NCBI GenBank assembly: GCA_016647705.1
Contig: CM028328.1
Coordinates: 38,974,501-39,038,500, forward strand
From: Eucommia ulmoides
Lineage: Eukaryota > Streptophyta > Magnoliopsida > Garryales > Eucommiaceae
DNA length: 64,000 nucleotides
Reading direction: 5' to 3'
Part shown: positions 9,045-49,150 of the stretch, one piece after another
How positions within the stretch are numbered: position 1 is the stretch's first letter
Layout of the letters: every line of letters starts with the position of its first letter
Notes under the pieces: model-generated
The model's input: the letters and a program-made list of their open reading frames with translations, nothing else
Told to the model about the DNA's origin: nothing
Database searches by the model: none
Position numbers and translations under genes: made by a program

Positions 9045-10390
9045 TAATTTTAAAAGTCATATTTGAGTAAATTATACCACGAATGATTGGTTATGATATA
9101 TGGGGTCTATAGGTGCTTTTAAATATCATATGTTGTGGAAACTAGCCATCAGAGGGCCTATTTTAAATTAGCTTAAATAGACCTGTGAATTTCATATTAT
9201 TAGAATACATAATCAAGAACTATCAAAGTTACATAGATTTCTAAGAGTTTTTATTCTGAGATATATTCGAGAGATCTATTGTGAGATTATTGTATGACAA
9301 GTTCTTGAGAAAAAACGCTATTGAGTTGGCATCACCGATTTGTGTTGTCTTGCTATTCTGATTTCAATCTTTCGGTGTTCTCTAGGTGAGATCTTTCCAA
9401 GCTATCATTCTTTATTGTGAAATCATATTACTATATTTGTTTGATTGATAAGGTTATATTAAAATCGTTTTTGAACTTTAAGAGCATAAAAATTATTTTT
9501 AAAACGATTTTTGTGATTATCTAATTACGTGTTTTATTTTATGCTACCCACACATATTATAATTAGATGTTTAATTCCTCAATTAATTTCTATCACGTAG
9601 TAATTATTGGGACATTAATTGAGTTTAATTGGTTTGAGGTATCGTAGAAGCTCTGAGTAGGAAGAAACTCAATGATTTTTTGTAATTAGTGAGTTTGTGA
9701 GGATTGGATATGGTTGGGATTGTATCTAATCGGGGTAGCTTGGGTTTCAATCTTTTCAAGAAAAAGATTGAGGTTTGATCTTTATCTAGTGGATAAAAAG
9801 GTTAGGTTATTCTTTTTCCTTGAAAAGAATTAGGAATGAATTCTTCCTGAATAGAGTTTGTTTTTGAATGAATTGTAACGGTTCTATCCTTACCGATGAA
9901 AATGATACTTAGAGTGTTTGTGAGGTTCGATTATTAGCCTGGTAAAAGGATTAGGTTGTGATTCTTCATGTAATAGAATTAGGTTAGTTTTTAGCCTGCA
10001 AAAAGATAAGGTTTTTCCTTAGCCTGTGAAAAAAGAATTGTAAAGGTTGATTCTAAGCTTGTGAAAAGAATTGTTGTGAGGGTTTGATTCCTATCGTTAA
10101 AGGAATCTTAGGTTTCTAGTGGGTGTGAATCTCCGTGGAGCTCGGGAGACTAGATCAGCCAAGACTAGCTTGGTGAACCAGGATATATCTTGGTGTGCTG
10201 CATTGATTTACTTTATTTATATTTTATTATTTGGGTGTACACCTAGATTTGAACACTTATCCGTTGCAAAACAAGATAATAATTAATTTAGGATAAAATT
10301 GATTATTTGATTAATTAAGTGTTTTAAATTGTTTAAATTTTTATAACCACCCAATTTACCCCCCCTCTTGGGTAGCTCACTGGGCCAACA
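9045..10390 (+). repeat. 5' LTR part of the Sirevirus-like element
   Basis: Aligns with the 3' LTR at 16480-17151 from the words TTTGAGTAAATTATACCA onward, and ends GGGCCAACA directly before the primer-binding site. It holds the run GGATTAGGTTGTGATTCTTC and the end CACCCAATTTACCCCCCC, both typical of this LTR group. Confidence 0.7.
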
Positions 10391-10404
10391 ATTGGCATCA
10401 GAGC
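10391..10404 (+). other. Primer-binding site
   Basis: ATTGGCATCAGAGC follows the LTR end, one base away from the copia initiator-tRNA-Met site TGGTATCAGAGC. The same word occurs at 56425-56438. Confidence 0.7.
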
Positions 10405-10419
10405 TAGTTTTAACTCGAT

Positions 10420-11300
10420 ATGACTCATAATCTAGCTAAACATGATCACATGGAGTGCACTGATTCTGATATTATATGTACCATTGTAGAGTCTCCCGCT
10501 TTCTCTAATAGTCATTGTTTTGCTGATGAGAATGATAGAATTCCTGATGATGAGAATATAAGGCCATTGAGATGCTAATTGCCCTTACCTGTGTTTTTGG
10601 AAAATATAATTTTAAACTTGGGCAAAAGATTGCAACCCTTGAAAATAAGAAGTTTAGTACTGCCAAATCTCTTAAGAAAAAGAATTTGGACAAATATTTT
10701 GAAACTGTTGAAATTACAAATGCTTTATCTGAAATTGGTAAGTTGTATGAAAAAATAGAGTCTCTTTAAGAAGAGAACGAAGTTTTGAAAACTGATATTT
10801 GTGATTTTTAACAAAATGATTTTAAAAAGAAAAATCTTGAAACTTTAAATGAGGCCTTGTGCATTGTGTTAGAAAATGCAAGGTGTAAGCTTGATGGAAC
10901 TCGTATGAAAATCCATTCTGTTGAAAATAAGTGCCAAATTCTTAAGAATAATCTTGAATTTATGCATAAGAAAAATTTTGGTCTACAGGTAAACGTTAGC
11001 ACAATGAAGCAGTTACTTGAAAAGACACAAAAGGAGCTTGATGAAGCAATGAATAAATTCAAGGATATTGTGATGACTAAACTAGTTGGAAAATTAATAG
11101 TTGCTAAAGCAACTCCACAATATTACCAATTATACCATGCTCCCATAGGGAACAATGACTATCTGAAGAAACGTACTAACAATGCTAAATATTTTTATTG
11201 TGGGAAGTATGGTCATTTTGAAAAAAAAAATTATTTATTACATGGTTACCCAGTCGGATCCAGAAATAACTAGATACCAAAAAGAGAAAACTTTTATCCA
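10420..11300 (+). pseudogene. gag C-terminal part of the Sirevirus-like element
   Basis: A helical region reading KNLDKYFETVEITNALSEI (about 10680) is followed by a lysine- and glutamate-rich coiled coil and a CCHC-type knuckle, YCGKYGHFEKKN, at about 11196-11235. The minus-strand element has a close counterpart (LDKYFETTELLNALSEI, about 46800-46860) and the same downstream GYP/VGS words. Role by family: capsid protein. Decayed. It continues into a lysine-rich tail up to about 11760 whose text (PKDDPGMSKF) is also shared with the other copy. Confidence 0.65.
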
Positions 11301-11804
11301 AGTACCACTCGGAGATTCAAACAAACACGAGGATACAACGAATACTGCCAAGAAAGGAGACTGGATTCAATGTACCTAAGAGAAAGAATCATTATGTGAA
11401 AATCGGAAGGATCAAAGAGCAGTAAGTTCATTACATGAAATCCAATAATTCTTATCCTCAACAAATGGCAAGATATCAATACAAGAAAATGATAGTGTAT
11501 AAAGCAGTGGCAAAACAAAATGAGGAAAAACAGCTCAAAGCACCGAACAAAGGCTATAAAATTATTACCGAACCTAATAAAAAAGGTGTCAGTCCAAGAA
11601 AAGAGGAAATCAAAGTAACAAATTAAGCAAAATAAAAAAATAGTGGATTTAAAGGACACCAAGATTGAAATCAGCAATCAACCAAAGGTACACATGCCAA
11701 TTTCTCCCAAAGACGATCCAGGTATGTCAAAATTTTTAAAGTTCAAGTTATTAATTTTGTTAGGAAGACTGATCCCTCACATTTCGAAAATTAGAGATTT
11801 GCGA

Positions 11805-11824
11805 TGTGTGTGTGTGTGTGTGTA
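11805..11824. repeat. TG microsatellite
   Basis: A run of about ten GT dinucleotides. Confidence 0.8.
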
Positions 11825-11944
11825 AGTGTATGGGTGTGAAAATATTTTAAAATAATATATGTGGATCAAAATAAGAGGTAAAAATTGAGTTATATTGATC
11901 AATTAGGACTAAATTACAAAAGGACAAAAGTAGGGTCAAAACTG

Positions 11945-12269
11945 CCAGTCAATCGACAGTAAAGCTGTCGGTCAACCGACTGTTACGGGTTTAAAATCCC
12001 CAACCCTCCTCATTTCACCCCATTTCGGTTTTGAAACCCTCTCTCCAAAAACCTTTCCTCTCCTAAGCACTTTCATCCTAAATCTTCATGAAATCAACAC
12101 GGTGTGGCTTGGATTTGAAGATCTAGGGCTCAGATCTACGATTTTGAAACCTATTTCTTTGATATAAGGTTGGTTATTCTATCTTTCCTCTAGGGTTTTG
12201 GTTTGTGCTTCATCTTAGATTAGATTTGTTGTGTTTTCTTGGTTGGTTGTTCTTTAAATCGTGAGAAAA
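11945..12269 (+). promoter_or_regulatory. Leader of the passenger reading frame, promoter-like
   Basis: Two GC-richer palindromic words (CAGTCAATCGACAG and CGGTCAACCGAC, 11947-11981) are followed by a TATA-like TTTAAAAT (11990-11997) and then a long pyrimidine-rich leader running to an ATG at 12270. The counterpart in the minus-strand element (about 45290-45605) has the same order: palindromes, TATTTAAG, pyrimidine-rich leader, reading frame. The shared order suggests a separate internal promoter and 5' leader. This is inference from layout only. Confidence 0.4.
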
Positions 12270-13560
12270 ATGCCTAGAATCAAGATGCTTACCCCAAGAG
12301 CTAAGTTTAACAAAGTTCATTTTTTGGAGCAAGGAGGAACTAAAATATAAAGTGGAGTTTGCTAATCGAAAGGTTGTATGTTGCAGACCCATAGATTTTG
12401 ATGGTCTAAAGAAGAAAAATCTTTATATTGAACCGTTTGTTAGTGTTTTGGGTTGGACCGATTTTGTCTCTGGTAGTAGCAAGTGGATGTCGATTTAGGT
12501 AAGGATGTTCTATAGCAACCTTACATATAATGAAGAATATGTAACGTTGTTTGTTTAGGAGAAGAAAATCAGGTTTAATAGTGCCCTTGTAAATGACATT
12601 TTGAAGTCGAAGAAAGGAAATGTGTTTCCCTACAATACCCTTCATTTGCTTTCGAGAAACTTTAATAGAAAATAAATTGCAGATAAGTTTGGGTTGGATG
12701 GTAATAGAGTAGGATTGCTTTCACTTGAGCACCGTCTTCTTCATTTGATGATCTCATATATGATTGTGCCTAGAGAAGGAAATCGTGCTAATGTGAATGA
12801 ATATAACTTGTATCTTTTGAATGAGATTGTTGAGGGAAGGAAACTTGACTTAGCCCATCTCATGATAGATTACATGAAATACCATCTACAAAACCCCTCT
12901 AGAGTATTACCCTATGCCAATGTGCTTCAAAGAGTGTTTGACTATTTTGGAGTGGGAGCTGATATAAAAGAAATAAAATTCTTCCTAGTAACCTCGGGAT
13001 GGATAAATGTGGGTAATATTATTTTAATGGGGTATGAATTTAAGAGGAATAGATGGGTGAAAAAGAGAAGTGATGAGAGACTGAGAATGATGGTAGAAGA
13101 AGAAGAAAACGAAGATGATGAGGAAGAGTTGAGCTCAAAGCAGAAGATGGATTTGCTTCAAGATCAGGTTGATCATTTTCGGGTACATGCGAATATGATG
13201 GATTACCGAATGTCTGGGCTAGAGAGTAGTATGGCTAAGATGAATGTGACAATGGATGTTGGATTTGGCAGAATCTCAAGCAAGATGGAACAAATGTTCC
13301 AGTTTATGCAGACCTTGCAATTTGCAACCCAGCAGCAGTTCAGTGCTCAGCAGCACTATAGTGGACAAACTATATTTAGAGTGCAATAATCCTTTGGAGT
13401 ATCTTTTGATGCAAGCCATCAGGAGCGGGACCGTCTAGAGCAGGGGCGTTAATGCAATACTATCAGCAGATGCTCTCGACCTCAAGCGTTTAGCCTGTTG
13501 TCTACTACCCACAACAGCTAGCCACCAGTCCATTGAGATTATACTATCCATTTACCAGAC
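12270..13560 (+). pseudogene. Passenger reading frame, putative plant transposon protein-like
   Basis: The likely start is ATG at 12270 (MPRIKMLTPRAKF), just after the pyrimidine-rich leader. The longest open part is 12694-13389. Recognisable blocks are IEPFVSVLGWTDFVSG (about 12430), a V-R-x-F-Y-S-N-L block (about 12500), SLEHRLLHLMISYMIVPREG (about 12723), LDLAHLMIDYMKYHLQ (about 12846) and a following VLPYANVLQRVFDYFGV. This block order matches a large family of plant transposon-associated proteins of unknown function (Pfam 'putative plant transposon protein'). The C-terminus has an acidic run (EEEENEDDEEEL), a coiled coil and a glutamine-rich tail. It lies where pol would be expected. The counterpart is at about 44400-45060, minus strand. 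It is broken. The function is unknown, and whether it is a cargo gene or an element gene is not settled. Confidence 0.6.
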
Positions 13561-13919
13561 AGGGTCCTCACTAGTCTTTATTCTTCATCTCTATTTCGGT
13601 TGTGTTTTGAATCTCAAACTCATCTCACGTTAAGTACTTTGGTCTATAATAGCCTAATTTAGGATTTGTGGTACTTGACTGCGTAGTATGTAGCTTTTTT
13701 TGGTTGTCTATACTTGATCGGTGTTGCTTAATATTTATCTTGATTCACATATCTTTTGAAAAATTGAAAATGGTTTTGATGCTTAAAATTGATTTTTTTT
13801 TATGCTTAAAAATTACTTTTTAATCAAAAAGTATTGATAAATCTTTTAAAGAAAAATATTTCATTTGAAATTAAAGATGTTTTTGGTTCTCCTTCCCCAC
13901 TTTTTGAGATGACAAAAAG

Positions 13920-15480
13920 GGGAAGAATATATTTGATGTTTATTAAATATGTTTAAAGAATTGAATTGATTTACAAAGGGAAAAATATAAAGGCGAAATC
14001 ATTATTGTGCTTAAAACGAGTTAGTTGATGTTTAGGATTTGTTCGCCTAAGCATTGCACCAATAAAATATAGAACTTTGTTGAAATGATCATGTTATGCT
14101 TGGTACATAAAATTGAAGTGTCTCTCAATTTGGTTTATTTAATTCTTTCTATTTATGCAATTTGAAATTGAGAAATAATTTGCGGACTTAATCGAAAATT
14201 TTTAAAATCCATATTTGAGTAAATTATACCAAGAATGAATGGTTATGATATATAGGGTCTATAGGTGCATTTAACAGTCATATCTTAAGGAAACTAGCCG
14301 TTAGAGGGTCTGTTTCAAATCAGTTTAAATAGACCTGCGAATTTCATATCATTAGAACACATCAATTAGGTAATATCGGTGCTGATATTATTGTTATTAA
14401 AGATGTTTTACTAGTTGATGGTCTTAAATATAACTTGCTTAGTATTACAAGGGGAAATCATTATTACGCTTAAAACGAGTTAGTTAATGTTTAAGATTTG
14501 TTCGCCTAAGCATTCCACTAATAAAGGGGGAGAACTTTGTTAAAATGATCATGTTTTTTTTTATTGAATTATCTTTTCGTTGAATTAATCATATTTGTGC
14601 TTATGTTGAATATCTGATAAATTTATTGAATTATCTTGGAGTTGAAATAATTTGAGAAATGAGTATTCCAGCAACAATCGGTCAACTAATGAGTTAAGGT
14701 TAAAGTTTTAAAAGCCATATTTGTGTAAATTATACCAGGAATGAATGGTAAAATATATGGGGTCTATATGTGCATTTAAATGTCATGTCTTGAAAAAACT
14801 AGTCGTTAGAAGGCTTGTTTCAAATCAGCTTAAATAAACCTGCGAATTTCATATCATTAGAACACATCAATCAAGAACTATCAAAGTTCCTAAACTTTCT
14901 AAGAGTTGTTATTCTGAGATATATTCGAGAGTTCTATTGTGAGATTATTATGTGAGAAGCTCTTTAGAAAAAGGGCTATTGAATTGGCGTTACTGATATG
15001 TGTTGTCTTGCTATTCTGATAATGTATCCCGATCATGATCATACACAACACAATTTAATGAGTTATATTTATGTGTGTTTAATTTGATGAAATTAAGATC
15101 CTAATTAGTGTTCAATTATTTGCTCCAATGTGAAATTGAAAAATTAATTGAATTGATTTGCAAAGGGGAAAATATAAAGAGAAAATCATTATTGCACTTA
15201 AAATGAATTAGTTGATGTTTAGGATTTGTTCGCCTAAGTACTGCACTAATAAAAGATAGAACTTTGTTGAAATGATCATGTTATGCTTGATAGAATATCT
15301 TAAACATTGAATTGAACATATTTTATGATTTGTTGAATATCTGATAAATTTATTGAATTATCTTCATGATTATGCTTTAACGAATTAAAAAACCTATCCT
15401 CGGATTTAGGAGGAGTGTGGTTACATTATTGTTTTAAAGAAAACATTAAAGTTAATTGTCATTATAAAAAAACGGGAGAT
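13920..15480 (+). repeat. Mosaic of repeated LTR and internal pieces
   Basis: Two modules recur out of order. Module A (containing GTTCGCCTAAGCATTGCAC and GTTGAAATGATCATG) occurs at about 13985-14100, 14457-14550 and 15180-15290. Module B, a slice of the LTR (containing GAGTAAATTATACCA and AGACCTGCGAATTTCATATC), occurs at about 14190-14365 and 14700-15025, besides the true LTRs. A chip of protease-region sequence (VLLVDGLKYNLLSI, about 14400-14440) lies between them, as does a slice from near the LTR start at about 15026-15145. The arrangement is directly visible; its cause is inferred in the findings. Confidence 0.6.
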
Positions 15481-17151
15481 TGTTGATCCTGAGATTTTGA
15501 TAGACAATTAAGGGTTAATATTTTTTGGTGGAACAAACGGGTTTGTTGAGTATTTAAGTATAAGAAGTTTCATTAAAGATTAAATCATGAAGCAATTATT
15601 CAAGATGCAGAGATAGACATCAAAGAGATGAAGAGTATTGAAGATTCTGAAGAAATTAGGTGAAAACAACTCAAACATCTTTTACACTTAATATATCCCG
15701 ATAAGGATCACACACGGCACAAATTAATGAGTTATATTTATGTGTGTTTAATTTGATGAAATTAAGATCCTAATTAGTGCTCAATTATTTGCTCCAATGT
15801 GAAATTGAAAAATAAAAATTGACCTAAGTAATATTAGTTTTTAAAATTGAATATTAGTGTCAATTGAGTTAACCGGGAAAAGAAATTGGTTAACGGGATT
15901 AAAACGATGAAGTTTGGAGTTGAAATAATTTGGGAAATAACTGTTCTAGCAATGATCGGTCAATTGACGGGTAAAGGTTTGGTCAACCAATGGGCGAAGG
16001 CTGGAAAACGAGGAGTCTCTAAATCAATCGGTCAACTGACCATGAGAGATCGGTTAACCGATTGGCCGAAGTGAAACTCTCTGTATCGATCGGTCAACCG
16101 ATCAAGGGGATCAGTTAACCGACTAGGGCCTTAAATTGACCTAGAAATCCAACCTTCATTGATTGGTCAATTGACTAGGGATGGGTCAGTCAACCGACTG
16201 CCTTAAGAGCTGGAAAGGCTTAACAACCTGTATTAATCGGTCAACCGATTGTCTGGTTAGAATTTCTAGGTTTTTAAGGATCAAATCAAATACAAGCCAC
16301 TTTTGGTATATCTTATTCAGATATTATTGGGATTTTAATATATTTCAGATATATAACATCTATTTTTATATCCATATAGATATGGTACATAAAATTAAGT
16401 GTCTCTCAATTTGGTTCATTTAATTTTTTCTATCTATGCGATTTGAAATTGGGAAATAATTTTTGGACTTAATCGAAAGTTTTAAAAGCCATATTTGAGT
16501 AAATTATATCAAGAATGAATGGTTATGATATATGGGGTCTATAGGTACATTTAAATGTCATCTATTGAGGAAACTAACCGTTAGAGGGCCTGTTTCAAAT
16601 CAGCTTAAATAGACCTGCGAATTTTATATCATTAGAATACATTAATCAAGAACTATCAAAGTTCCTGAGTTTTCTAAGAGTTGTTATTCTAAGATATTTT
16701 AGAGAGATCTATTGTGAGATTATTGTGTGAGAAGTTCTTGGGAAAAAACGTTATTAGGTTGTAATTCTTCCTATAATGGAATTAGGTTAGTCTTTAGTCT
16801 GCAAAAAGATAAGGTTCTTCCTTAGCCTGTGAAAAGAATCATTGTGAGGGTTTGGTTCATACCATTAAAGGAATCTTGGATTTTTAGTGTGTGCGAATCT
16901 CCATGGAACTCGGAGGATTAGATTAGCCAAGGATAGCTTGGTGAACCAGAATATATCTTGGTGTACTGCATTGATTTACTTTATTTGTATTTTGTTATTT
17001 GTGTTTGTACCTAGATTTGAACACTTATACTCTGCGAAATAGGATAATAATTGATTTAGGATAAAATTGATTATTTGATTAATTAAGTATTTTAAATTGT
17101 TTAAAGTTTTATACCTACCCAATTCACCCCTCTCTTGAGCAGCTCACAACA
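15481..17151 (+). repeat. 3' LTR of the Sirevirus-like element
   Basis: Starts TGTTGATCCTGAGATTTTG right after a purine-rich AAAAAAACGGGAGA and ends GCTCACAACA. The first bases are clearly related to the LTR start of the autonomous element at 54242. It holds the palindrome array at 15950-16250. Confidence 0.7.
15950..16250 (+). repeat. Array of CGGTCAACCG palindromes in the LTR
   Basis: At least nine copies of the words CGGTCAACCG, CGGTTAACCG, GGTCAATTGAC or GGTCAACTGACC, most of them perfect or near-perfect palindromes, spaced 20-45 bases apart. They lie in U3, about 470-770 bases from the LTR start. Confidence 0.7.
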
Positions 17152-17153
17152 TA

Positions 17154-17290
17154 AATAATTCCATGTTTTTTACAAAACAATTATAACTCAGGGTTGGTAA
17201 CCCCGAGTATTGAAACCCGGGGTAACGAACCCCGGGTATAACTCAAAAAACAACCCCTAAACCCAAGGTTGTCAACCCCAGGTACTCGGT
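17154..17290 (+). repeat. Left terminal inverted repeat of the MULE
   Basis: Reads AATAATTCCAT, then TTATAACTCAGGGTTGG, ACCCCGGGTATAACTC and onward. The reverse complement of 25612-25742 gives the same order of words with roughly 80% identity by eye. Near-palindromic GGTTGTCAACCCC words continue to 17425. Confidence 0.7.
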
Positions 17291-17444
17291 CCCGTTTGTA
17301 TTTTTATTTTTATAGATAAACCCGAGGTTGTCAACCCCGATTTTGTTTTGAATTTTCTATTAAACCCGAGGTTAACAACGTCGGGTTCAATTTTAATTTT
17401 AAATTAAACTTGGGGTTGTCAACTTCAGATTTAAAGAAATCCTC

Positions 17445-17451
17445 TATAAAT
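17445..17451 (+). promoter_or_regulatory. TATA box at the left end of the MULE
   Basis: TATAAAT followed 20-190 bases later by a CT-rich, leader-like stretch with a CTT microsatellite (about 17564-17598). This is a plausible start region for the transposase transcript. MULE terminal repeats often hold promoters. Confidence 0.4.
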
Positions 17452-17454
17452 TCC

Positions 17455-17640
17455 TGGGGTTCAGTGCAAACCCTACCTCCCCCTCTTCTTCCTTTCTTTT
17501 CTTTCTCAGCGCCGCATCTTCCTTCTCATCTCTTCTTCATTTCTTCTTCATTCCAGCCATCGCTTCTTCTTCTTCTTCTTCTTCTTCTTCTTCTTCTTCA
17601 TTTTTCCCTTCTTCTTTCTTCCTTCTTCCACAATCCTCCA
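17455..17640 (+). repeat. CT-rich leader with CTT microsatellite
   Basis: Pyrimidine-rich sequence with about twelve TTC/CTT triplets near 17564-17598. The leucine-rich and serine-rich frame over it (17410-17784) is an effect of composition, not a protein. Confidence 0.5.
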
Positions 17641-17699
17641 TTCTGTTCCACTGCCACCGCTGTTTCGCCGTCTTTGAGGTTATTTTATTTTATTCATTT

Positions 17700-20290: not shown

Positions 20291-20299
20291 ACATAGTTA

Positions 20300-21751: not shown

Positions 21752-21778
21752 ATATATATATATATATATATATATATC
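21752..21778. repeat. AT microsatellite
   Basis: An uninterrupted TA run of about 13 units. Confidence 0.9.
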
Positions 21779-25480: not shown

Positions 25481-25611
25481 CCAGGGCCAACAACCCCAAG
25501 TTTATCCATATATATATATAAATAATTAAAAAAAAAAAAACTAATAGGACCGTATACCTAGGGTTGAATATATATATATAAATAATTAAAAAAAAAATAA
25601 CAGGACCGTAT

Positions 25612-25742
25612 ACCTAGGGTTGACAACCCCGGGTTCAGGAGTTATTTTTTGAGTTATACCCGGGTTTGTAACCCCAAGTTTCAATTCTGGGGGTTACGAA
25701 CCCCAAGTTATAATTCTTTCGTAAAAAAGATGGAATTAATTA
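25612..25742 (-). repeat. Right terminal inverted repeat of the MULE
   Basis: The reverse complement matches 17154-17290 (AATTCCAT, TTATAACT, GGGTATAACTCAAAAAA). Two near-identical AT-rich direct repeats with ACCGTATACCTAGGGTTGA words lie just inside it (about 25543-25625). Confidence 0.7.
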
Positions 25743-25959
25743 TTTTTCAGAAAATAAGTAATAAAAAAATTATTATTATGTAAAAAACTCGCCAAACTTG
25801 TCGATTAATCTATAATCGATATGCGATGTAAAAAGGGAGGACATTTTACTTTTTTAATTCTTGTTTTAAACTTTCTTTTGCATAAAATAAACAACAAAAA
25901 TGAACAATGGGAATTATTATGTTAATAGGACTGAAGAAAATTAATTGGACTTGATTTGA

Positions 25960-29040: not shown

Positions 29041-29922
29041 TGTTAGCCCCTAACAATGCTAGAGGACCAAACAGCACTGACTTAGTGCACTTTCCTACCG
29101 GCCACAGTGCGTGTGGCACGAACGGGGTCGTTGGCAAGGACAACACCAATTTAGTGCACGTCGGTGGGCTGAGGCATTGTGACACAACATCGGTGGGTGT
29201 TGGGTAGTAAGGAAGACCTCGGTGCGGTACCGAGATAAGGCAATACAACGTAGGCGCAATGCTACATTGTGGGCAGAGTCATGTACGGCGTACGACGGAC
29301 TGTTAGGAACGGCGGTGTATTTTGGTACGAAAACTGCATATGACGTTGGGTCGTCATTGCGCGCAATGATGCAACCAAACAGAACGTGGGTGCAACGACA
29401 CGTTCTGGCCATTCAGGCGGCTTGGAAAGACGTTGGAGAATGTCGGTTGACTATGGGACGAGATAGCAACGAGGTAGGATGTTGGGACGGTGCAACAACG
29501 CTGAAAGGAAGTTGAGCTCGTGGTGAGCTGATGGACTAGTGGTTACCATGAAGTTCTGGAGAGTTTTCAGTGGTAGTTTTAGTTAGTTTTTAGACAGGGA
29601 AACTAACTCATGTGGTATTGACACGTGTTGGGACAAATGTCGGTTGTCTGCCTAGGTAGTTAGGGTTGTCAACTGTTGTTTTCTCCTATAAATTATCATT
29701 GTTCAGGTCAGTTTTTGACTAGTGAATGTAGGACCTACGGAATTCAAACTATAGATGTAAATTAGTTCCTTGTAACCCGAGTTAATTAATACAAGGTTGG
29801 GTTTTCCTGTAAACGTTATTGTGTCGTTGCGTGAGTGCGTTTCTAGTACTGTTTCAGTGTATTCTCTATTGTATTACGTTGTAGGAACATGTGTGTTATA
29901 CATACGAGTTAGTGTACTTTTG
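29041..29922 (+). repeat. 5' LTR of the gypsy fossil
   Basis: Begins TGTTAGCCCCTAACA, itself a small palindrome, and matches 31413-32290. TATA-like TATAAATTATC at about 29690 and AATTAATACAAGG near 29780 fit the promoter and polyadenylation region. The 3' limit is approximate. Confidence 0.75.
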
Positions 29923-29924
29923 TT

Positions 29925-30980
29925 GCGTTGGAAGACTACGTCGGTGAGCCACCGAAGGGCAGTGAGGTGAACCTGTCTATGCAGAACATTGAAGTAAAGG
30001 TCGACATTGCGAATCCGCGAATTTCTTTTGAGGAATTCTGTACCAATACGTCAGCCAAAATCACGTCCATGGCGGAGGACATGATTGCGTTGGCTGATGT
30101 TTTGAAAAGCAACCTCAAGAGCGTTGAGGATGAAGTTGTTCTTTTCAAGAAGGCCGTTGTTGGACAGTGCACGTCACAGGACGGATCAGCATGGATGAAG
30201 GTGCCGAAGCCATCGGCATTTTCGAGTACTCGAATTGCCAAGGAGTTAGAGAACTTCCTTTGGGACATGGAGCAATATTTTCAGATTACTCATGTTCATG
30301 ACAGTGATCAAGTATCCATCTCGAGTATGTACATGGTTGGAGACGTGAAGTTGTGGTGGCGACGCGTGTGGTAGACAACACACATCCAACGATAAGGATG
30401 TAGGTTGATTTGAAGAAGGAACTCAGGTAGCAGTTCCTACCAAAAAACTCGAGTTGGGTGGCTCAAGATCAATTGCGGCGACTTAAGCACATAGAATTGG
30501 TGCATGAGTATGTGAAGGACTTCACATCCTTACTATTGGATGTGAAAAATATGTCGAAAGATGACAATCTCTTCAGTTTTACCTCCGGCTTACAACCGTG
30601 GGCGCAACCAAACTCAGACGGTAGGGCGTATGGGACCTGCCGACTACCGTGGCAGCGGCAGACAGCCTGAGCAACTACAACCTAACACGAGACAGTAGCG
30701 GATCTGACCAGAAGTCAGGTAGGAAAGGCAAGGAAAAAATGAACAAGGGCACGATGAAATGGAAGAACAAAGGTGTGGAGGCCAATGTTTCCGAGGGTCC
30801 TTATTCAAAATCACAACTGACGATGGCCGCAGGTAAGAGCCAAAGTTGTTTTATTTGCGATGGTCCCTACCAAGCGAGGGACTGTCCAAAGAAAGAAAAG
30901 TTGACGACGCTGGTTCGGGAGAAATCAAAAGATGAAGGCTTTGGACGAGAGATTGCGCGCGTTGGTACAATGTTGTTGGT
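29925..30980 (+). pseudogene. gag of the gypsy fossil
   Basis: The text KELENFLWDMEQYF and SISSMYMVGDVKLWW (about 30235-30360) is the hallmark capsid block of chromovirus gag. A basic linker and a CCHC knuckle, CFICDGPYQARDC, follow at about 30847-30885. It packages element RNA in the living relatives. Decayed. Confidence 0.75.
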
Positions 30981-31412
30981 GGACAACAATGAGCAGATCA
31001 AGAGTGATCTGAATACGGGTATGTAGTAAACCTGATTCGGGACGTAGGATGTTGGAAACTGTTTTATGTCCCGTACTGAAAAATAACCAGAGGTGATTGG
31101 TTATCGTGGGTGTTTCCAAACGAGGTTGTTGCGGTAGCAAATGGGCTAGTGGTCAGTCTGATCACGGAAGGTGTTCTGTGGCAAAGACATTACAGGGAAT
31201 TACAACGGACCGATGGAAGTCTGCAGGCAGATTGAGGAGACTGTGGCAGAAAAAATTGACAAACATATAGCAAATAGTTTTAATGAATTGAGACGGCTGC
31301 TGACAGATTGAGAAGATTGTGGCAAAATGGTTGGCATCGGTATATGCCAAAACCAGTGGATTATGCTGGGATCGATCCGACGAGGACATCGGGTTCTTTT
31401 GGTGGGGTGGTT

Positions 31413-32377
31413 TGTTAGCCCCTAACAACGCTGGAGGACCAAACATCACCGACTTGGTGCACTTTCCTACTGGACACGGTGCATGTAGCACGGACGGGGT
31501 ATTGGCAAGGACAACACCAACTTGGTGCATGTCGGTGGGCTGAGATGTTGTGGCACAACACCGAAGGGTATTGGGTAGTGAGCAAGACCTTGGTGTGGTA
31601 TCGAGGTAAGGCAGCACAATGTAGGCGCAACGCTACGTTGTGGATAGAGTCATATATGGCGCATGACGAACTATTGGGAACAGCGGTGCATTTTGGTACG
31701 AAAAATGCATACGACGTTGGGCGCAACGACTCAACGAAATAGAATGTGGGTGCAACGACACGTTCTGGCCATGTAGCCGATATGGTAAGACGTTGGAGAA
31801 CGTCGGTTGACTATGGGACGAGATGACAACGAGGTAGGCTGTTGGGACGGTGCAAAAACGCTGAAAGAAAGCTGAGCTTGTGATGAGCTGATGGACTGGT
31901 GGTTACCAGGAAGTTCTGGACAGTTTTCTGTGGCAGTTTTAGTTAGTTTTCAGACAAGAAAACTAATTCCTATGGTGCTAACACGTGTCGGGACAGGTGT
32001 CGGTTGTCTGCCTAGGCAGTTAGGGCTGTCAACTGCTATCTTCTCCTATAAATTGCCATTGTTTAGGTCTATTGTTGACTAGTGAATGTAAGATGTGCAT
32101 AACTTACACCCTAGATGTAAATTGGTTTCTTATAACCCGAGTTAATTAATACAAGGTTGGGTTTTCCCGTAAACGTTATTGTGTCGTTGCGTGGGTCCAT
32201 TTCTAGTACTGTTTTGGTGTATTCTCGGTTGTATTACATTGCAGGAACATGTGTGTTTTACATACGAGTCGGTGTAATTCCGTTGCGTGGCTGGACATTC
32301 ACAAAGTTGCTAGTTGTCGGTGCAACTAGATCATTACACGGTTATGATTTTTGTGGTAAAAATGTAACCCTGTGACA
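31413..32377 (+). repeat. 3' LTR of the gypsy fossil
   Basis: Starts TGTTAGCCCC directly after the polypurine tract. The end is placed at CCTGTGACA because the next bases, CCTAG, resemble the left flank CCTAT. TATA-like TATAAATTGCC at about 32047. Confidence 0.7.
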
Positions 32378-37599: not shown

Positions 37600-37745
37600 A
37601 CGATGGCCCAACATCAATATTGCTTTTATACACTCTAGACGATAGCTCGGCATCATCATTATCGCTATATACTCTGGATGACAGCCTAGCTTTATTGTTA
37701 CCCCCGTTTCGCAAAGAATAGGATGTAGATCCAAAATCTCTCGCC
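37600..37745 (-). repeat. Short tandem coding repeat (SSRVY)
   Basis: On the minus strand three units read ARLSSRVYSDNDDAE, LSSRVYKSNIDVG and PSSRVPLL, about 45 bases each. At DNA level TCTAGAGTGTATA-like words recur. Confidence 0.5.
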
Positions 37746-40529: not shown

Positions 40530-40705
40530 TAGCAAGATATAAATGTCACTTATCTCGTGGGAGATTGTAGCAAGACATAAACGTAGTTTTATGTGAATTG
40601 TAGAGAAGTATAAAAGTAGCTTACATTGTGAGAGAGTGGCAAAGAATAAATATAGATTACCTTGTGAGAGAGTAGCAATATATAAATGTACCTTATCTTT
40701 TGAGT
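40530..40705 (+). repeat. Degenerate tandem repeat in the LTR, unit about 40 bases
   Basis: Four to five units of the form GCAAGATATAAATGT ... CTTATCTCGTGGGAGAG-like words (40530, 40566, 40605, 40646, 40674). Confidence 0.6.
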
Positions 40706-41037
40706 GTAACAGTTTAATCTTTATCAGGAAAGAAGATATAAAATACTAGAGGATTAGAAAGCTCCGAAAGAGATCGAGAGAATAGATATAGGTAAGAAGG
40801 GACCTTGGTCGAACTAGTATAAATCTATGTGTCTACAATGTCACTATCTCAATCTTTATCTATGTGCTTGTGCCTTTATTGTTTACTTATATATTCCACT
40901 GCAACTCTTTAACACTTATAATTCATTACTAAATTGCTTAGGAGTATTTTAAAGCGTAAATTAAAAGAAAGTAAAAACTTGTAAGTTATTTTCACTACTA
41001 AATTAAAAACCCCTTCTCTTGGTTAGACTTGGACCAA

Positions 41038-41056
41038 ATATTTGTACTAAAGCTCA
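41038..41056 (+). other. Primer-binding site, decayed
   Basis: ATATTTGTACTAAAGCTCA follows the LTR end and resembles ATTTGGTATCAGAGCTC. Confidence 0.45.
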
Positions 41057-41099
41057 ATTACTTATAGGATTAAAATCCATAACAATTCAATCCATTATA

Positions 41100-41365
41100 A
41101 ATAACTCATCATTCACATTGCTTGTAGGGCAGTCCATGCATAGGCAACCATTGTTTACTAGAGATAACTATGTATTCGGGAAGGCCAAAATGATAATGTT
41201 CCTACAAGCGACAAACTATAAGGTTTGGCGAGTAATTAGGAACGATTAATATACTTCTAGGAAGATCATAGACTCATGTGAGATCAAAATATCATACTAG
41301 GAGTATAATGAGACTGATATCAAGTTATTATCATTATTTCACCTATGGTTTTTATTCATGCCATG
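41100..41365 (+). pseudogene. gag N-terminal part of the plus-strand fossil
   Basis: Reads MHRQPLFTRDNYVFGKAKM and FLQATNYKVWRVI, the opening block of Sirevirus gag, followed by the EYNETDIKLLSL block at about 41305-41340. Confidence 0.6.
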
Positions 41366-41896
41366 AAAAGAGTTCATGTAAGCTTTTATCTCTTCTAAAT
41401 GATTTGAGACAAATAGTCAATGAGAAACGATCCAAAAATCAGGAGAGTCATTAAGTTCTAGGCCAAAGGGAAAATGAAAATATTGATGAAACTATCAATC
41501 ATTCTCGACCAAAAGAGAATCAGGAGGTAGTTGAAGTAATTGGGGAGGATGAAGCGGTTACGAACTTTGAGAAAAGTAGTTTTGAAGCTATTGTAGAAGA
41601 TGGGCATCAATCTAACCTTTCTCCTAATAGTATGGTCCCTGATCAAAATCCTAATGCCCGATTGGGGAACATAGCAGAGGTAAAGAAATTATTTATGCCA
41701 TACAAATCTTTGGGGACAAGAAAGAGTCAGTTCCTATCACAGAGGTTGTATTTAGCAATATGGATTTTTGAAGAATATGAATGTGTGTCCAAGGGAATGG
41801 TTCTGGAGGGAAAAAAAATTCGAATCATGATTTAGATCCAGAACCAAATCCCAAACTTCATCTTTCGCCTAGACGTTGTGGTGAGGCTAACTATTT
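41366..41896 (+). other. Coding-like segment of unknown origin inside the gag region
   Basis: Frames read ENQEVVEVIGEDEAVTNFEK and PNSMVPDQNPNARLGNIAE (about 41510-41680), with continuing text up to SPRRCGEANYF before the minus-strand element. The flank resumes at 49151-49366. It is not gag and I do not recognise it. It may be a further insertion (LINE or captured gene) in the Sirevirus. Confidence 0.25.
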
Positions 41897-43834
41897 TGTT
41901 GGCCCACATATCTACTCGAAGGGGGGTTGAATTGGGTAGTGATACAAATTTAAACAATTAATTATCAAACACACAAATTATCAATTTTCCTAACTAGTTA
42001 TTATCTTGTATTACAGCAAAAACCTATTTAACTAAGTACACAACGAAACTACTAGAAATAACGAAAAAACACACAACGATTTATCCTGGTTCGATAAACT
42101 ACTCTTACTTATATCTAGTTCCTCGAACTCCATAGGGTTTTCGTAATCCATTAATCCTTGATTTCTTTCCTATGTAGCAACCAAACCCTTACAATTTTTT
42201 TCACAAGCTAAAGACTAACTTAATTCTTTTCCCAACCTCAGAATCAAACATTTACAATTTCTCTTTTCACAAAATAAGGAAGAATCCTATCTTTTTACCA
42301 AGTTAAAGATTAACCTAACTCTATTATAGACAAAATCAAACTTCATCCATTTCATAGGCTAGATCAAACCTATCTACCCCGATTAGTTACCGACCTAAAT
42401 ATATCAAATCCACTCACTTTCACAAATAAAAAATATACAAGTTTCTTCCCATAGGAACTTCTATCACCTTAATACAATGTATGATCTATTAATGTCCTGA
42501 TACCACATGATAGAACTACATGGAAAGACAAAACTGATTTTACTCAATTCAAGCACACGGATAAATTAAATTAGATTTCATAAGCAAAAACCGATTTACA
42601 AGATTTTTAGGATATTCTTAATTAAAAATGATTTTTCACATAAAATACATACTAACTCAATTTAAGAATATAACTCAATTAAAGCATATATAATATTAAG
42701 CAAGTAATCAAGAACAATCTCATCGGGATTTTTTTTAGAAGAACGTATTAAACACTCAACCCAGAAATAGCAAGAACGGTGATTTTTTCAAAGCAAAACT
42801 TTTTGTCTTGAATTGATTGTTATTAATTTAAAAATACAGGTCTTATTACATAGATTTCAAATTGTGTCTGTAACGGCTACTTTTCAAAATATAAAACCAT
42901 CTAGGACATTTTATGATATTTTAAGACCCCATACAAAATACTCTTTTAAATCAAATGTATTTAATTTAAAAAATACTCTTTGAAAAGCTCAATTTAGTCT
43001 CCAAAACTTCTTTGATTCAAAATTCTTAAATATAGAAAGTAGTTTTACCAATTAAACTCATAGAATCAATTAATATAAGGACAAATTAATAGAATCTTCA
43101 AAATATGTGATAGATATATGAAATATGGTCAAATTCCCTTAAAATCAGATTTTCTAATGTTCAAAACCATAGGATTTGGGTTGAATATCTAAAAAAACAG
43201 AAACTGTCAAAGTAGACTGAATCTTGATATGTCAGTATCGGACCCCCTATCAGTTAATCGGTCATTTGCAATGGTCTAAATTCTAACTGTTGATACCTTC
43301 TGTCAGTTGTTGATCCTTTCAGTGCTCGACCGTTTTGTCCTGTAGCTCTTTCTCATATATTTTTACAGGCCACTGATCTTTTTAGTCAACAAAGATTTCC
43401 CGTCAGTCGACCAAATGGACCAGAAACTTTCCCCTTCATGTTTTAGAACCATTTTCTTGATTTAACACTTTATGTAAAATATTTAGGATCTTAAATTTAT
43501 TACTTCTTACCATCGCACGTAGAATAATACTCAATTTTACGTGTTGTGTGTAATCCTAATTGAGTTGCATTAAGAGCATAAAAGTATTGAGTTATTTTTA
43601 CCTAAAAAAAAAAAAAAAAACAATGCCCCAAAAATTCTTCAATGACTTCGCTTGCAACCATCTTGAATCTTTTGTAAAATGTCGTCTTTGTAAATCTTCA
43701 ATGATTATTATATTTTACGATTCATTTTTTTCTCCTTTGCTCAAACGAAACTCTAATCTGAAATCACTCAATAAACATATTAGTTTTATAAAATATCAAC
43801 ATTAAATTGTCCATCAAAACATCTAGGGTTAACA
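41897..43834 (-). repeat. 3' LTR of the minus-strand element
   Basis: The minus-strand LTR starts TGTTAACCCTAGATG and ends GGGCCAACA. Palindrome-type words (GGTCGACTGACGG, ACCGATTAACTGA) occur at about 43220-43410. A poly-A run lies at 43602-43620 on the plus strand. Confidence 0.7.
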
Positions 43835-44399
43835 AGTCAACAGTCTTTCTTTGTTTTGTTATGACAATTAACTTTGATGTTTTATCAACAAAATATGTAA
43901 CCACGCTCCCCCTGCATATGGAGGGAGAATTTTTTAACTCATTTAAAACCATAATGAGAAAAATATTTTTAAAAAAAATATGAAATATAGCTCATAAAAT
44001 ATATTTGCTCCAACTTTCTGATTATTTTCATGAATTCATGCAAGGAGAACACATAATTTGAAAAACATCATATAACTTCTCCCCTTTCATCATCACAAAA
44101 AGTGGGGAGGAATGATCAAAACATCTACGTTTAACCCCGAATATTCAAAATAATTACTCTTTTTAAAATTCATCCTTTAACCTTTTGTAATTTGTAAATA
44201 TATTTCTCAAAAAAAAAAAAAAAAAAAAAGCACTAATTTATATCCAAGTTAAAACATCAGCATTTTTTTTATTTAAAGATCAATTCTAATAAACAAATCG
44301 TAAAAAATAATATTTATATAGATCATTATATGGATTACCCTTTTTGGTAATGTTGACTAACTTCTCAGTTTCTTCTTCATCATCGAGAATTGTCACATA

Positions 44400-45060
44400 A
44401 TATTCATCTTCACTTTCTTCTTCTTAACGATAACCCATTGACTGAACATTATTCATATTGAAAATAGTTGTGTCTTTCATATAATATTTTGCACATTTTT
44501 CATCGATTTGAACCAGAAAATTTTGAAGAATGTAGCATATCACACCGCCATAAGGTAGAACACTAGACTCAACATTTAAGTGGTATTGCATGTGTTCAAG
44601 CATCAAAGATGAGAGATCAATTTTGTCCTCGTTTATAAAAACATTCAACATGTATGCATCAAAGTCGGTTACCATAGAGAAATGGATTCCACGAGGGACA
44701 ATATTAGAAGAGATGATGCCCTAAAGTCAACAACTCCTAACTCTGCATATGTTTGCACAATATCCATTTTCTATTGAAACCATGATAGGGAGTTCTTAGG
44801 AACAATCATTCCTATCTTTAACTTTAGAATAGTGGCGAACTCTTTGACACATATTTCAATTCTAATTATATTTACATACAAACAAACCTTCTCCCCAACA
44901 ATGTGAAAATTACTATCGAACAATTTTACCCATTTTTAATAAAACATGTCTTGTTCTTAACAAGAAACTTACTCCACCCCAACTTCTTGAATTTCAACAA
45001 TATATCAATTCCACTGGATGAAAGATAATCAAAATCCATACCCCAAGCCCATACCAATTT
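44400..45060 (-). pseudogene. Passenger reading frame, second copy
   Basis: Homologous to 12270-13560. Minus-strand blocks WVKLFDSNFHIVGEKV (about 44940-44890), KIGMIVPKNSLSW (about 44820-44785), and the open stretch 44675-44424 with KIDLSSLMLEHMQYHL and VLPYGGVICYILQNF match, in order, the blocks with FYSNL, FPYNTLHLL, LDLAHLMIDYMKYHL and VLPYANVLQRVFDYF of the first copy. An acidic tail (EEESEDE) follows the last block, as in the first copy. Broken. Confidence 0.6.
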
Positions 45061-45289
45061 CCTATGACTAAAATCATTTTGATACAGACTTTATTTGCAA
45101 GATTTAAGAACATTTTCTTATCAAATGATTTGCTAGAACTAACCCTAAAATTTGGCGCCGTTAGAGAGACTTTGAAATATCAAACGTACAGGGATGGAAG
45201 TTTAGCCAAGAATACAAGAACTCAAGGAATAGATCTTGATCTTACAAAAATATAATAAGATTGGGAGAGAGAAATCATAAGATAGTAGA

Positions 45290-45605
45290 GATTTCTTCCA
45301 ACCACACAATTCTTCTTCCAAATTAGTGAAATCCTTCTTCGATCTTCACACCATTCACTCGATCTAGCCTTTTTAGATGGGAATTTCATGAAAGACTTAT
45401 GTTTATGAAGGGTTTTTTCACTTAGAGTCTCAGAGAGAATATGAAAGGAGAGGCCAAAATGATGAGCAAAACCTTAAATAGTCCATTTACCCCAAAGTTT
45501 GTCGGTTGATTGAGTATAGAGTCAATTGACTAGCTCTTTTCGTTAAAGGTGTCCCCTTTACTGACCGCCTATTTTCAATCAAGCGGTCATATGGTTGGTT
45601 GACTG
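45290..45605 (-). promoter_or_regulatory. Leader of the second passenger copy, promoter-like
   Basis: Minus-strand order: palindromic words (GTCAACCAACC, AGTCAATTGACT, TCAATCAACCGAC) at 45605-45500, the TATA-like TATTTAAG at about 45474-45481 and a CT-rich leader. It parallels 11945-12269. Confidence 0.35.
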
Positions 45606-46299
45606 GCTGTGCCTATTTTTTAACCATTTTTCTTCTTTTTTTTTTCACTCAGCCTCATTCATTTCTCAATTTGATCCACATAAATAGTCATTTAAAAAAT
45701 TATTTTGTCCCATTAAATTAACACACATAATCAATGAATCTAATTAGTAGAAAAATGAGAAGCATTTGTATCCCTAACAAAATTGACATATTTATGCTTT
45801 GGGAAATTTGACATACCTGATTCATCTTTGGGAGCCATTGGTGTGGGTACCTTACATTGATTTTCAACACGAGTCTCAATTTCCTTTGAATCAACTAATT
45901 GATCATTTAACTGATTCACCTTGATAATGTCTTCCTTTTTGTAAGGAAGTCTTCAAAACATTTTTCAGTAATAATATTTTTGCCTTTATGAGATACTTGA
46001 GATTGATTTATCTTGCTATGATCCACAATGACTTTATACACTAGCTTCTTCTGATTCAGATTTTGTACTTTTCTTCGGTGATAATCATTGATTTGTCTCT
46101 CATACTGAAATTGTGGCTTTCTAAAAAAAATCTCTTTTAAATCTTTGCACATCAAATTGATTCATCCTTCTCAGTTCAGGAAATCTTGCATTTTTCTTTT
46201 GCACATAATTTTCATTCATCTTTCTTGGTCTAACAAATCCATACTTCATATCTACAGAAAAAAAAAAAAAAAAATCTAGGCATCAAATTATTTTTGGAT

Positions 46300-47110
46300 C
46301 CTACTGAGTAACCATACAGAAGGTAACACTATTTTTCAAAATGGCCAAAATTTCCACAATAATAACATCTAACATTATTCAAAATCATTTTTAAATAATC
46401 AACTTTCCACAATAATAACATCTAGAATATCGGTATTGATATTGAGGAGCTGCCTTAGGGTCTACCTGTTTTGCAAAAACTTCAGTTTTCTCAATATTCT
46501 TGAATTTATCAACAACCTCATTAAACTCTTTTTGCGTCTTTTCAATTCACCGTTCCAATGAACTAACATTTACCTGAAGACCAAATTTTTTCTTGTGCAT
46601 AAATTCAAGATCATTTTCAATAAGATGCATTTTCAAATGAGCTCTATCAAGTTCAAATCTTGCACTGTCCAATTCAATTTTTAAAGCCTCATTTAAAGTT
46701 TCAATATTTTTATTTTTGAAAACTCATTGTTGAAGATTTGAAACATTATTTTTCAGAAAAATATTTTCTTCTTCAAGGTAGTCAATGTTTTCAAGAAGGG
46801 TGCTTATCTCAGATAGAGCATTCAAAAGTTCAGTAGTTTCAAAATACTTGTCTAAATTACTCTTTTTAAGAGTTTTGGAAGTACTGAAATTTTTGTTTTC
46901 AGGAGTAGCAATTTTTTGTGCAAACCTCAAATTTCTTTCCCAAAAACATCTGTGAAAGCAATCAATTTCTGAAAAGCCTTATTAGTAGCCTCATTATCAC
47001 TATCTTTATCATTCTCACCAACTGAACCTTGATTATTAGAACAAATATGAGATTTAGATAAAACATTAGGACAGACAAAAGATCCACATAAAATATTTTC
47101 TTCAGTACAC
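46300..47110 (-). pseudogene. gag part of the minus-strand element
   Basis: The minus-strand stretch 46930-46724 reads KNFSTSKTLKKSNLDKYFET and LEEENIFLKNNVSN, a close match to the coiled coil at 10620-10790. Knuckle-like CYYCGN/GHFEK text follows at about 46400-46330. Decayed. Confidence 0.6.
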
Positions 47111-47174
47111 TCTATGTGATCATGCTTAGCTAGGATATTAAGTGTATCGAGCTAAAACCAACTCTAGTACTAAT

Positions 47175-49150
47175 TGTTGGCCCACCGATCTACCCAACAG
47201 GCTGGGTGAATTAGGTAATGATAAAAATTTAAACAATTAATCATGAAACACACAAATTACCAATTTTCCAAATTGGTTATTATCTTGTAATATAGCAAGA
47301 ATGTATTTAACTAAGTGTACAACCAAACAACTAGAAATAAAGAAAAGACACATAACGATTTATCCTAATTCAGTAAGTTACTCTTACCTACATCTAGTCC
47401 TCTAAGCTCCATAGGGCTTTAGCAATCCACTAATCTATGATTTCTTTCTTAGGTAGGAACCAAATCCTTATAATCTTTTTCAAAGGCTAATTTCTCAAGC
47501 TCAGAATCAAACCTTTAAAATTTTTCTTTTTCACGCTCCAAGGAAGAACCCTATATTTTTATCAGGTTAAAAATTAACCTAATTCTATTACAGGTGTAAT
47601 AAAATATAATCCTTTTCATAGGCTAAAGTTAAAACATATTTACCTTGATTATACACCGACCCAAATGTCCCTAATCTACTCACACTTACAAAATACAAAA
47701 AATACAAGTTTCTTCTCACAGGAACTACTACTACCTCAATATAATGTATGATCAATTAAGGTAACGATACTACATGATAGAACTACATGAGAAAATAAAT
47801 TTGATTTTATTAAATTTATGCACATAGATAATTTAAATCAAATTTCATAAGCCGAAATTGTTTTACAAGATTTTCAGGATATCCATAATTGAAAACTAGC
47901 TGAATTTAAGAATATAACTCAATTAAAGCACAGATAATAATGAGTAAGTAATCAAGAATAATCTCACCGAGATTTCTTTTAGAAGATAATAGGAAAGACT
48001 CAAATCCGAAAATAGCAAGAACGATAATTTCTTCAAAGCAAAACTTTTTCTCTTGAAAGTACTCTCAGTAAAATAATTCCCTCTTTACAAATATAGATGA
48101 ATAAAACTCTTTCTCTTGATTGTTATTAAGTTAAAAATGCAGATCTTAATATATAGATTTCAAACTATGCATATAACGGCTACTTTTCAAAAGATAAGAC
48201 CATTTCTGACACTTTAAGACCCCATATAAAATATTAATTTAAATTAGATGTATTTGGTCAAAAAATACTCTTTGAAAACTAAATTTAGTCCCCAAACTTC
48301 TTTGATTCAAAATTGTTAAATATAGTAAGTAGTTTTATCAATTAAAGTCATAGAATTAATTAATGTAAGGACCAATTAATAGTATCTTTGAAATATGTGA
48401 TAGATAGTTGAAGTATACTCAAATCCCCTTAAAATCAGATTTTCTAACGTTCAAAACCATAGGATTTTGGTTGAGGATCTCAAAAAATGAAACAATCAAA
48501 GTAAACTGAATCTCCATAAGTCGGTCGACCAGACCCCCTGTCAGTTAACCGACCCCTTGCAACGATCTAAATTCAAACGGTTGACACCTTTTGTCTCCTG
48601 TTGGATCCTTTAAGTGATCGACCATTCTAGCTAGTAGCTCTTCCTCATATTTTCTCACAAGCTACTTAATCTTGTTAGACTACCGAGGCTTCTCGTCAGT
48701 CAACCGAATGGACCAAAATCTTTTACTTTCATGTTTTAAAACCATTTTCTTGATTTAACACTTTATGAAAAACATTTTCATGATTTAACACTTTATGAAA
48801 AGCATTTAGGATTTTAAATTTATCACTTCTTACCGTCGTACGCATAAGAATACTCAATTTTACGTGTCGTGTGTGATCCTAATTAGGTCTCATTAAGAGT
48901 ATAAAAGTATTGAATTATTTTTCCCTAGAAATACAAAAAATCGTCAATGCTCCAAAATATTCTTCAACGCCTTCGCTTGAATCTTTTGTAAAACATCGTT
49001 TTTGTAAATCTTCAACAATCATCATTTTTTTATGATTCATTCTTTTTTCTCATTTGTTCAAACAGAATTATAATCTAAAATCACTCAATAAACATATTAG
49101 TTCTATATAACATCAATATTAAATTGTCCATCAAAACATTTAGGTTAACA
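47175..49150 (-). repeat. 5' LTR of the minus-strand element
   Basis: Second copy of the LTR at 41897-43834, 1976 bases, ends TGTTAACC and GGGCCAACA on the minus strand. Contains palindrome words near 48520-48720 (GGTCGACCGACTT read on the minus strand as AAGTCGGTCGACC). Confidence 0.7.

What the first reader, a model, noticed from the sequence alone, without database searches (positions are those of the whole stretch)
9045..49150. Non-autonomous Sirevirus family that carries the same passenger gene in two distant copies
Elements at 9045-17151 (plus) and 41897-49150 (minus) have Sirevirus-type LTRs, a gag coiled coil and knuckle, a shared lysine-rich tail (PKDDPGMSKF / PKDESGMSNF), a palindrome-bearing leader and then a reading frame of the 'putative plant transposon protein' kind in place of pol. 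Seen directly: the order of blocks matches in both, although the LTRs of the two copies are clearly diverged from each other. Inference: the passenger was acquired before the two lineages split and was kept through at least one round of amplification, so it may have mattered to the element. This is my best candidate for an undescribed system: a gag-plus-cargo LTR element mobilised by relatives such as 54242-63427.
Basis: partly seen in the sequence, partly recalled or inferred. Interest (0 to 1): 0.75.

Follow-up and report, generated by a model that had tools for sequence, protein, structure and literature searches.

The report
Pol-less retrotransposons keeping one extra gene
The two elements belong to a large family of damaged plant retrotransposons that lost their copying machinery but kept an extra gene under natural selection, and that gene's predicted shape resembles a known DNA-binding protein with which another kind of transposon switches off host silencing.

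The parts
9045..10391 (+). Element A: 5' LTR, truncated at its 5' side (about 1 kb missing)
   Evidence: matches 3' LTR 87.9% (9048-9328) and 80% gapped (9950-10380); relatives in L002-L008 have longer LTRs
10392..10410 (+). Element A: primer binding site TTGGCATCAGAGC next to LTR end CCAACA
   Evidence: read; pattern match
10414..11822 (+). Element A: ORF1, coiled coil, CCHC knuckle and lysine-rich tail, broken; no capsid domain found
   Evidence: relatives L048/L049
11877..12264 (+). Element A: leader with palindromic boxes at about 11946-11955 (2 mismatches) and 11969-11978 (exact CGGTCAACCG)
   Evidence: array of boxes in relatives
12265..13386 (+). Element A: ORF2, PF20167 frame (open stretch 12676-13386)
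13387..15482 (+). Element A: linker with polypurine tracts, LTR-like fragments and a 74-bp pol remnant (14367-14440)
15483..17147 (+). Element A: 3' LTR with 5 palindromic boxes by the strict scan; its last bases lost
47174..49151 (-). Element B: 5' LTR (first bases lost)
   Evidence: 83.3% identical to its 3' LTR over 1875 aligned bases
45743..47151 (-). Element B: ORF1, coil, knuckle and tail, broken
45091..45742 (-). Element B: leader with two degenerate palindromic boxes (2 mismatches each)
   Evidence: none by the stricter scan
44289..45090 (-). Element B: ORF2, PF20167 frame in pieces
43836..44288 (-). Element B: linker with one AGGGGGAG polypurine tract
41896..43835 (-). Element B: 3' LTR
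54243..63423 (+). Element C: gag-pol relative (capsid PF14223, knuckle just under its cut-off, pre-integrase, RT; RNase H-like end by eye), no room for ORF2; 3' LTR end truncated

Best explanation
A and B are old, broken members of a non-autonomous Sirevirus-type LTR retrotransposon family that carries ORF1 (coil + zinc knuckle + basic tail) and ORF2 (PF20167). It lacked capsid and pol before the A/B split (inferred from the shared plan) and copies itself with the proteins of gag-pol relatives that share its LTRs (inferred). ORF2 holds the place of the Sirevirus 'envelope-like' gene and was kept by purifying selection while the lineage amplified (shown for A-type copies). Most likely (inferred) ORF2 is no envelope: it is a sequence-specific DNA-binding protein of the VANC fold, perhaps paired through its long C-terminal helix, that binds the palindromic boxes in the LTRs and just upstream of its own gene, and so counters silencing or drives transcription of its own family and of box-bearing gag-pol helpers. 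My step-by-step estimates: family and order 0.97; selection on ORF2 0.9; trans mobilisation 0.85; fold relation to VANC 0.7; box binding and anti-silencing 0.35. The confidence below weighs the reading as a whole, function included.
Confidence: 0.4

Rival explanations
1. ORF2 is an envelope-like or movement protein, as usually said of this gene position; the pol-less elements keep it because it helps particles move or assemble.
For: Its position behind palindromic boxes and before the polypurine tracts is that of Sirevirus ENV (PMC2829016, passages); PF20167 hits the extra ORF of a sunflower Athila element (PMC11728184, passages).
Against: No 19-residue window passes the usual 1.6 hydropathy limit in 6 ORF2/PF20167 proteins, though one reaches 1.58; the modelled domain resembles a DNA-binding protein.
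Confidence: 0.15
2. ORF2 acts on RNA: it binds hairpins formed by the palindromes in the element's transcript and favours packaging of that RNA into the helper's particles (cis preference), together with the knuckle of ORF1.
For: Boxes pair as RNA with many G-U cells; leader boxes, and LTR boxes at the RNA's 3' end, could be transcribed; cis preference would explain selection on a protein of a non-autonomous element.
Against: The fold match is to a protein-DNA complex; G-U cells also arise by decay of CpG. The position of the boxes does not decide.
Confidence: 0.2
3. Pure parasites: selection on ORF2 acted in a rare, unseen gag-pol-ORF2 master, and the pol-less copies are its repeated deletion products.
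For: Omega falls with divergence (0.385 to 0.186), which old selection followed by neutral decay would also give; only 4 of 32 copies lack stops in the 237 codons.
Against: The same ORF1 without a found capsid domain, and like spacing, in both the A and B lineages; 0 of 29 A-type loci with pol nearby; gag-pol relatives C, L047 and L079 lack ORF2 before the 3' LTR.
Confidence: 0.15
4. ORF2 was captured independently in each copy or moves as its own unit within the elements.
For: The same domain also rides in an unrelated Athila-like element of this genome.
Against: Fixed order and spacing with ORF1 at 27 of 30 pairs, shared leader.
Confidence: 0.02

Closest known systems
Pol-less Athila families of Arabidopsis (Marco and Marin 2008, PMC2410132; abstract and two sections read)
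   Same: Non-autonomous LTR elements with gag or gag+env ORFs under purifying selection, thought to be moved in trans
   Different: Athila is Ty3/gypsy; here the LTRs and cis signals are Sirevirus-like (Ty1/copia), no capsid part was found in ORF1, and a palindrome array precedes the extra ORF
Env-containing Sireviruses (Bousios et al. 2010, PMC2829016; abstract and passages read)
   Same: Palindromic CGG-CCG boxes in the LTR and 5' of the env-like ORF, AGGGGGAG tracts before the 3' LTR, C-rich signal near the LTR end
   Different: The elements described there encode gag and pol; sequence homology of ORF2 to their ENV was not tested
RLG_Quinta/RLG_Cereba pair (PMC11302176; abstract read) and TR-GAG elements (PMC8704663; passages read)
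   Same: Non-autonomous element with its own ORF, thought to be helped by a gag-pol relative
   Different: Their ORF is GAG; here no capsid domain was found and PF20167 is retained
VANC21 of VANDAL21 (PMC5735166; passages read; PDB 9lnj)
   Same: Transposon-encoded protein, similar predicted fold, and short motifs repeated in non-coding parts of its own element
   Different: VANDAL is a DNA transposon; its motif YAGTATTAY is not palindromic; no sequence similarity found

Membership tests
Sirevirus (cis signals) | PBS complementary to initiator tRNA-Met, TATCAGAGC | tested here: met
   A: GCATCAGAGC (one base off); L040 TATCAGAGC exact; B is degenerate
Sirevirus (cis signals) | Repeated palindromic CGG-CCG motif in the LTR, also 5' of ENV when ENV is present | tested here: met
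   5 boxes in A's 3' LTR (0.05 expected), 33 in 30 leaders (0.6 expected); weak or absent in the LTRs of B and L048 and in C's 3' LTR
Sirevirus (cis signals) | Multiple AGGGGGAG tracts in the linker before the 3' LTR | tested here: inconclusive
   exact copies in the linker: L048 3, A 1, B 1, L049 1, L047 1, C 0, L050 0, with further one-mismatch copies; no shuffle control was run
Sirevirus (cis signals) | C-rich integrase signal near the LTR 3' end | tested here: met
   A: a run of seven C about 25 bases before the LTR end, read by eye; no statistic
Sirevirus (coding) | Large gag with central knuckle and downstream coil | tested here: not met
   A, B, L048, L049: no capsid domain found in the pieces scanned; C has PF14223 and a knuckle just under its cut-off
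Sirevirus (coding) | Reverse transcriptase falls in the Sirevirus clade | not tested
   no RT found in A and B; no reference RT set was at hand for C
TR-GAG | GAG as the only ORF | tested here: not met
   no gag domain found; two ORFs
PF20167 (Transposase_32) | Score over the Pfam cut-off of 45 bits | tested here: met
   L050 53.3 and L048 46.6 bits; under it: A 26.0, B 21.5, L021 33.7 and L051 17.0, incomplete frames
VANC anti-silencing protein | VANC fold | tested here: inconclusive
VANC anti-silencing protein | Encoded by a VANDAL (Mutator-like) transposon | tested here: not met
   encoded in LTR elements; so 'works like', not member
VANC anti-silencing protein | Binds its motif and removes methylation | not testable with these tools
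   needs protein and methylome data
Plant retroviral envelope-like protein | Transmembrane segment | tested here: not met
   no 19-residue window above 1.58 in 6 proteins, by a simple hydropathy scan

The most novel reading that the evidence does not exclude
Plant 'envelope-like' genes of the PF20167 type are not envelopes but VANC-fold DNA-binding anti-silencing factors whose sites are the Sirevirus palindromic boxes. Pol-less elements supply this factor while gag-pol relatives with the same boxes and LTRs supply the enzymes: a two-component retrotransposon partnership, with one protein fold shared by DNA transposons, Ty1/copia and Ty3/gypsy elements.
Probability: 0.25. Interest if true: 0.85.

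Novelty: new variant of a known kind. Interest (0 to 1): 0.62.

Why it matters
What the extra ORFs of plant LTR retrotransposons do is open, and an envelope function in plants is called controversial (PMC7264820, abstract and two sections read). A 2026 paper says it remains to be investigated whether the Athila and Tork lineages encode such ORFs and whether the proteins change the elements' epigenetic state (PMC12844716, passage). A fold link to VANC21, together with a palindrome array placed before the gene and in LTRs, turns that question into a binding experiment. It would also help to explain why a non-autonomous lineage keeps a gene under selection.

Tried and rejected
First structure job on the whole 404-residue frame gave pLDDT 53 and was not searched; the second, on 252 residues of the domain with two more distant rows added, gave 79.7. 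The viral structure library gave no match under E 0.45. Sequence searches of solved structures gave nothing meaningful. ORF1 as a truncated Sirevirus gag: profile comparison aligned only the two knuckles (probability 1.5%, E 0.033), so its origin stays open. Selection on ORF1 is not shown. The idea that the boxes are the best conserved part of the leader was tested and is wrong. Target duplications were looked for by eye at A, B, C, L047 and L048: none; the Athila-like element has GTACA on both sides. Copy numbers are lower bounds: only 150 candidates were scored of 2807 (ORF2) and 3661 (ORF1). The organism is inferred: contig 8 is 79,924,242 bases and the longest scaffold of Eucommia ulmoides v2.0 is 79.92 Mb. 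In-print claims rest on paper searches in open-licence PMC only; none of these listings (titles, starts of abstracts) nor the passages I read link PF20167 or Sirevirus ENV with VANC. A count failed for a wrong program option and was repeated.
Full report
What is in the window. Self-comparison and six-frame pieces confirm two elements of the same plan. A lies on the plus strand and B on the minus strand. Each has LTR-type repeats, a tRNA-Met type primer site, ORF1 (coil, CCHC knuckle, lysine-rich stretch, tail PKDxxGMSxF), a leader, a PF20167 frame (ORF2), a linker and the 3' LTR. A and B parts are related at the protein level. Both ORF2 copies hit PF20167 below its cut-off; open frames of relatives L050 and L048 pass it. 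Copy A is badly damaged: its 5' LTR lacks about 1 kb, and its linker holds stray LTR pieces and a 74-base pol remnant. ORF1 does not look like a full gag: no capsid domain was found in the open pieces of A, B and the relatives L048 and L049 that I scanned. The third element, C, is a gag-pol element with capsid, pre-integrase and RT domains and a knuckle just under its cut-off, and has about 330 bases between its last pol frame and the 3' LTR, no room for ORF2.

It is a family. The genome (946.7 Mb; by scaffold length very likely Eucommia ulmoides v2.0) gives 150 scored and listed matches each for A's ORF2, A's ORF1 and B's ORF2, all capped lists; the weak end of the third list includes A-type places. 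Between the first two lists, 30 same-strand pairs lie within 20 kb, about 0.5 being expected; 27 have one spacing (1.86-2.02 kb on the plus strand, 2.07-2.24 kb on the minus strand, where start coordinates are counted from the other end) and 3 lie at 3.3, 3.8 and 7.6 kb. Of 29 A-type ORF2 loci besides the window, 23 have ORF1 parts within 1.5 kb upstream and 6 do not; none of 29 has a pol match at E 1e-4 within 1.5 kb, while the window's own copy has the stranded remnant. Of 9 B-type loci other than the window's, 5 have the ORF1 tail upstream, one more only an ORF1 coil match, 3 neither (flanks of unequal length). L048 is a clear example: two LTRs of about 2.2 kb, 89.7% identical, with 3.9 kb between them and ORF1 and ORF2 as the sizeable frames.

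The helper. L047 carries LTRs that match A's at 80-88% in pieces, a like primer site and pre-LTR segment (88%), but between them matches to C's capsid, knuckle, protease, integrase, RT and RNase H pieces, and no ORF2; Pfam confirms Pol_BBD, pre-integrase and RT in it. L079, presumably the 3' part of the element whose capsid gag is in L067, also runs from RNase H to the pre-LTR segment without ORF2. The stretches L078 (a shortened interior) and L080 (unrelated sequence after RNase H) show no ORF2 either. Of 40 scored matches to the end of A's LTR, I took the 14, besides the window's own, that reach towards the interior: 5 lead into capsid gag, 2 into A-type ORF1, 5 into a third interior with a distant ORF1-like frame, 2 could not be classed; one of these two begins like ORF1 by eye. 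Of two third-interior elements read further, one keeps an RT and RNase H remnant and neither has ORF2. One LTR family thus carries at least three interiors, as expected if non-autonomous members use gag-pol members; movement in trans itself is inferred.

Selection on ORF2. For 32 A-type copies (L050 dropped as a duplicate of L014), pairwise dN/dS has median 0.251 over 496 pairs, against 0.38 to 1.6 in the five other frames; codon-position diversity is 0.212/0.133/0.334. The copies were mostly found by protein similarity, which biases this downward, so I simulated neutral copies picked the same way under three settings: omega 0.64, 0.77 and 0.84, position diversities nearly equal; the simulated dS (0.12-0.26) is lower than the observed 0.75, so the match is not exact. 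Omega falls from 0.385 in the closest fifth of pairs to 0.186 in the most distant, as expected if masters were selected and inserted copies decay. The N-terminal stretch of ORF2 gives 0.27 (30 copies, controls 0.40-1.57), B's ORF2 0.44 (10 copies, controls 0.57-1.54), and ORF1 only 0.50 (9 copies, controls 0.57-1.0), which is not convincing. Only 4 of 32 copies are free of stops in the 237 codons.

The palindromes. The leader carries an array of up to four boxes of the form arm-TCAA-arm, e.g. CAGTCGGTCAACCGACTG, at near-constant places. A strict scan finds 33 boxes in 30 leaders against 0.6 expected from dinucleotide shuffles, 22 in the downstream flanks (linker and LTR, 0.95 expected), 0 in ORF1 parts (0.7 expected) and 2 in ORF2 (0.25 expected); 21 of 30 loci have at least one in the leader. 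A's 3' LTR and the 5' LTRs of C and L047 have 5, 2 and 2 (expected 0.15 or less); B's and L048's 5' LTRs have 1 each; the 3' LTRs of C and L048, the leaders of B, L048 and L049, and the gag-pol interiors of C and L047 have none; the rest of the window has 1 (0.95 expected). For the last box of 25 loci, 87.5% of cells pair, against at most 46% when slid, and 22 cells changed on both sides against 7.4 +/- 3.3 in shuffles; the number of pair types does not exceed shuffles. So symmetry was kept while letters changed, though two old box types inherited by many copies would also give part of this. The boxes are not more conserved than the rest of the leader. Bousios and co-workers described such CGG-CCG palindromes in Sirevirus LTRs and 5' of the ENV gene, with forms such as CGGTCGACCG (PMC2829016; abstract and passages). 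ORF2 therefore sits where Sirevirus ENV sits. I did not compare it with a Sirevirus ENV sequence.

Verdict. The general kind, pol-less elements with selected ORFs, is known from Athila (PMC2410132; abstract and two sections). What I did not find described (searches listed under Tried and rejected) are the Sirevirus-type version with its measured selection, and the VANC-like fold of a gene that sits in the envelope position behind a symmetrical box array.

Noticed in passing
L052+L055 (C17:30815695-30823267): An Athila-like LTR element (97% LTR identity, GTACA duplication) whose only sizeable frame is a PF20167 protein; a partial relative lies in L053/L054.
   Followed up: partly
L076, L077 (C11:24514050-24517900; C9:45332400-45336000): A third interior behind A-like LTRs: a distant ORF1-like frame without ORF2, in L077 followed by an RT and RNase H remnant.
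   Followed up: partly
window 29131-32011: Direct repeats of about 520 bases 2.4 kb apart flank frames that look by eye like a Ty3-type gag with a knuckle; possibly a TR-GAG element.
   Followed up: no
window 14367-14440: A 74-base pol fragment, 81% like 58203-58276, stranded in the linker of A.
   Followed up: no
window 2416-4074: Broken frames that look by eye like a Ty1/copia gag-pol of another lineage.
   Followed up: no
window 17148-17313 and 25585-25746: Inverted copies 82.5% alike, the first directly after the damaged end of element A's 3' LTR.
   Followed up: no
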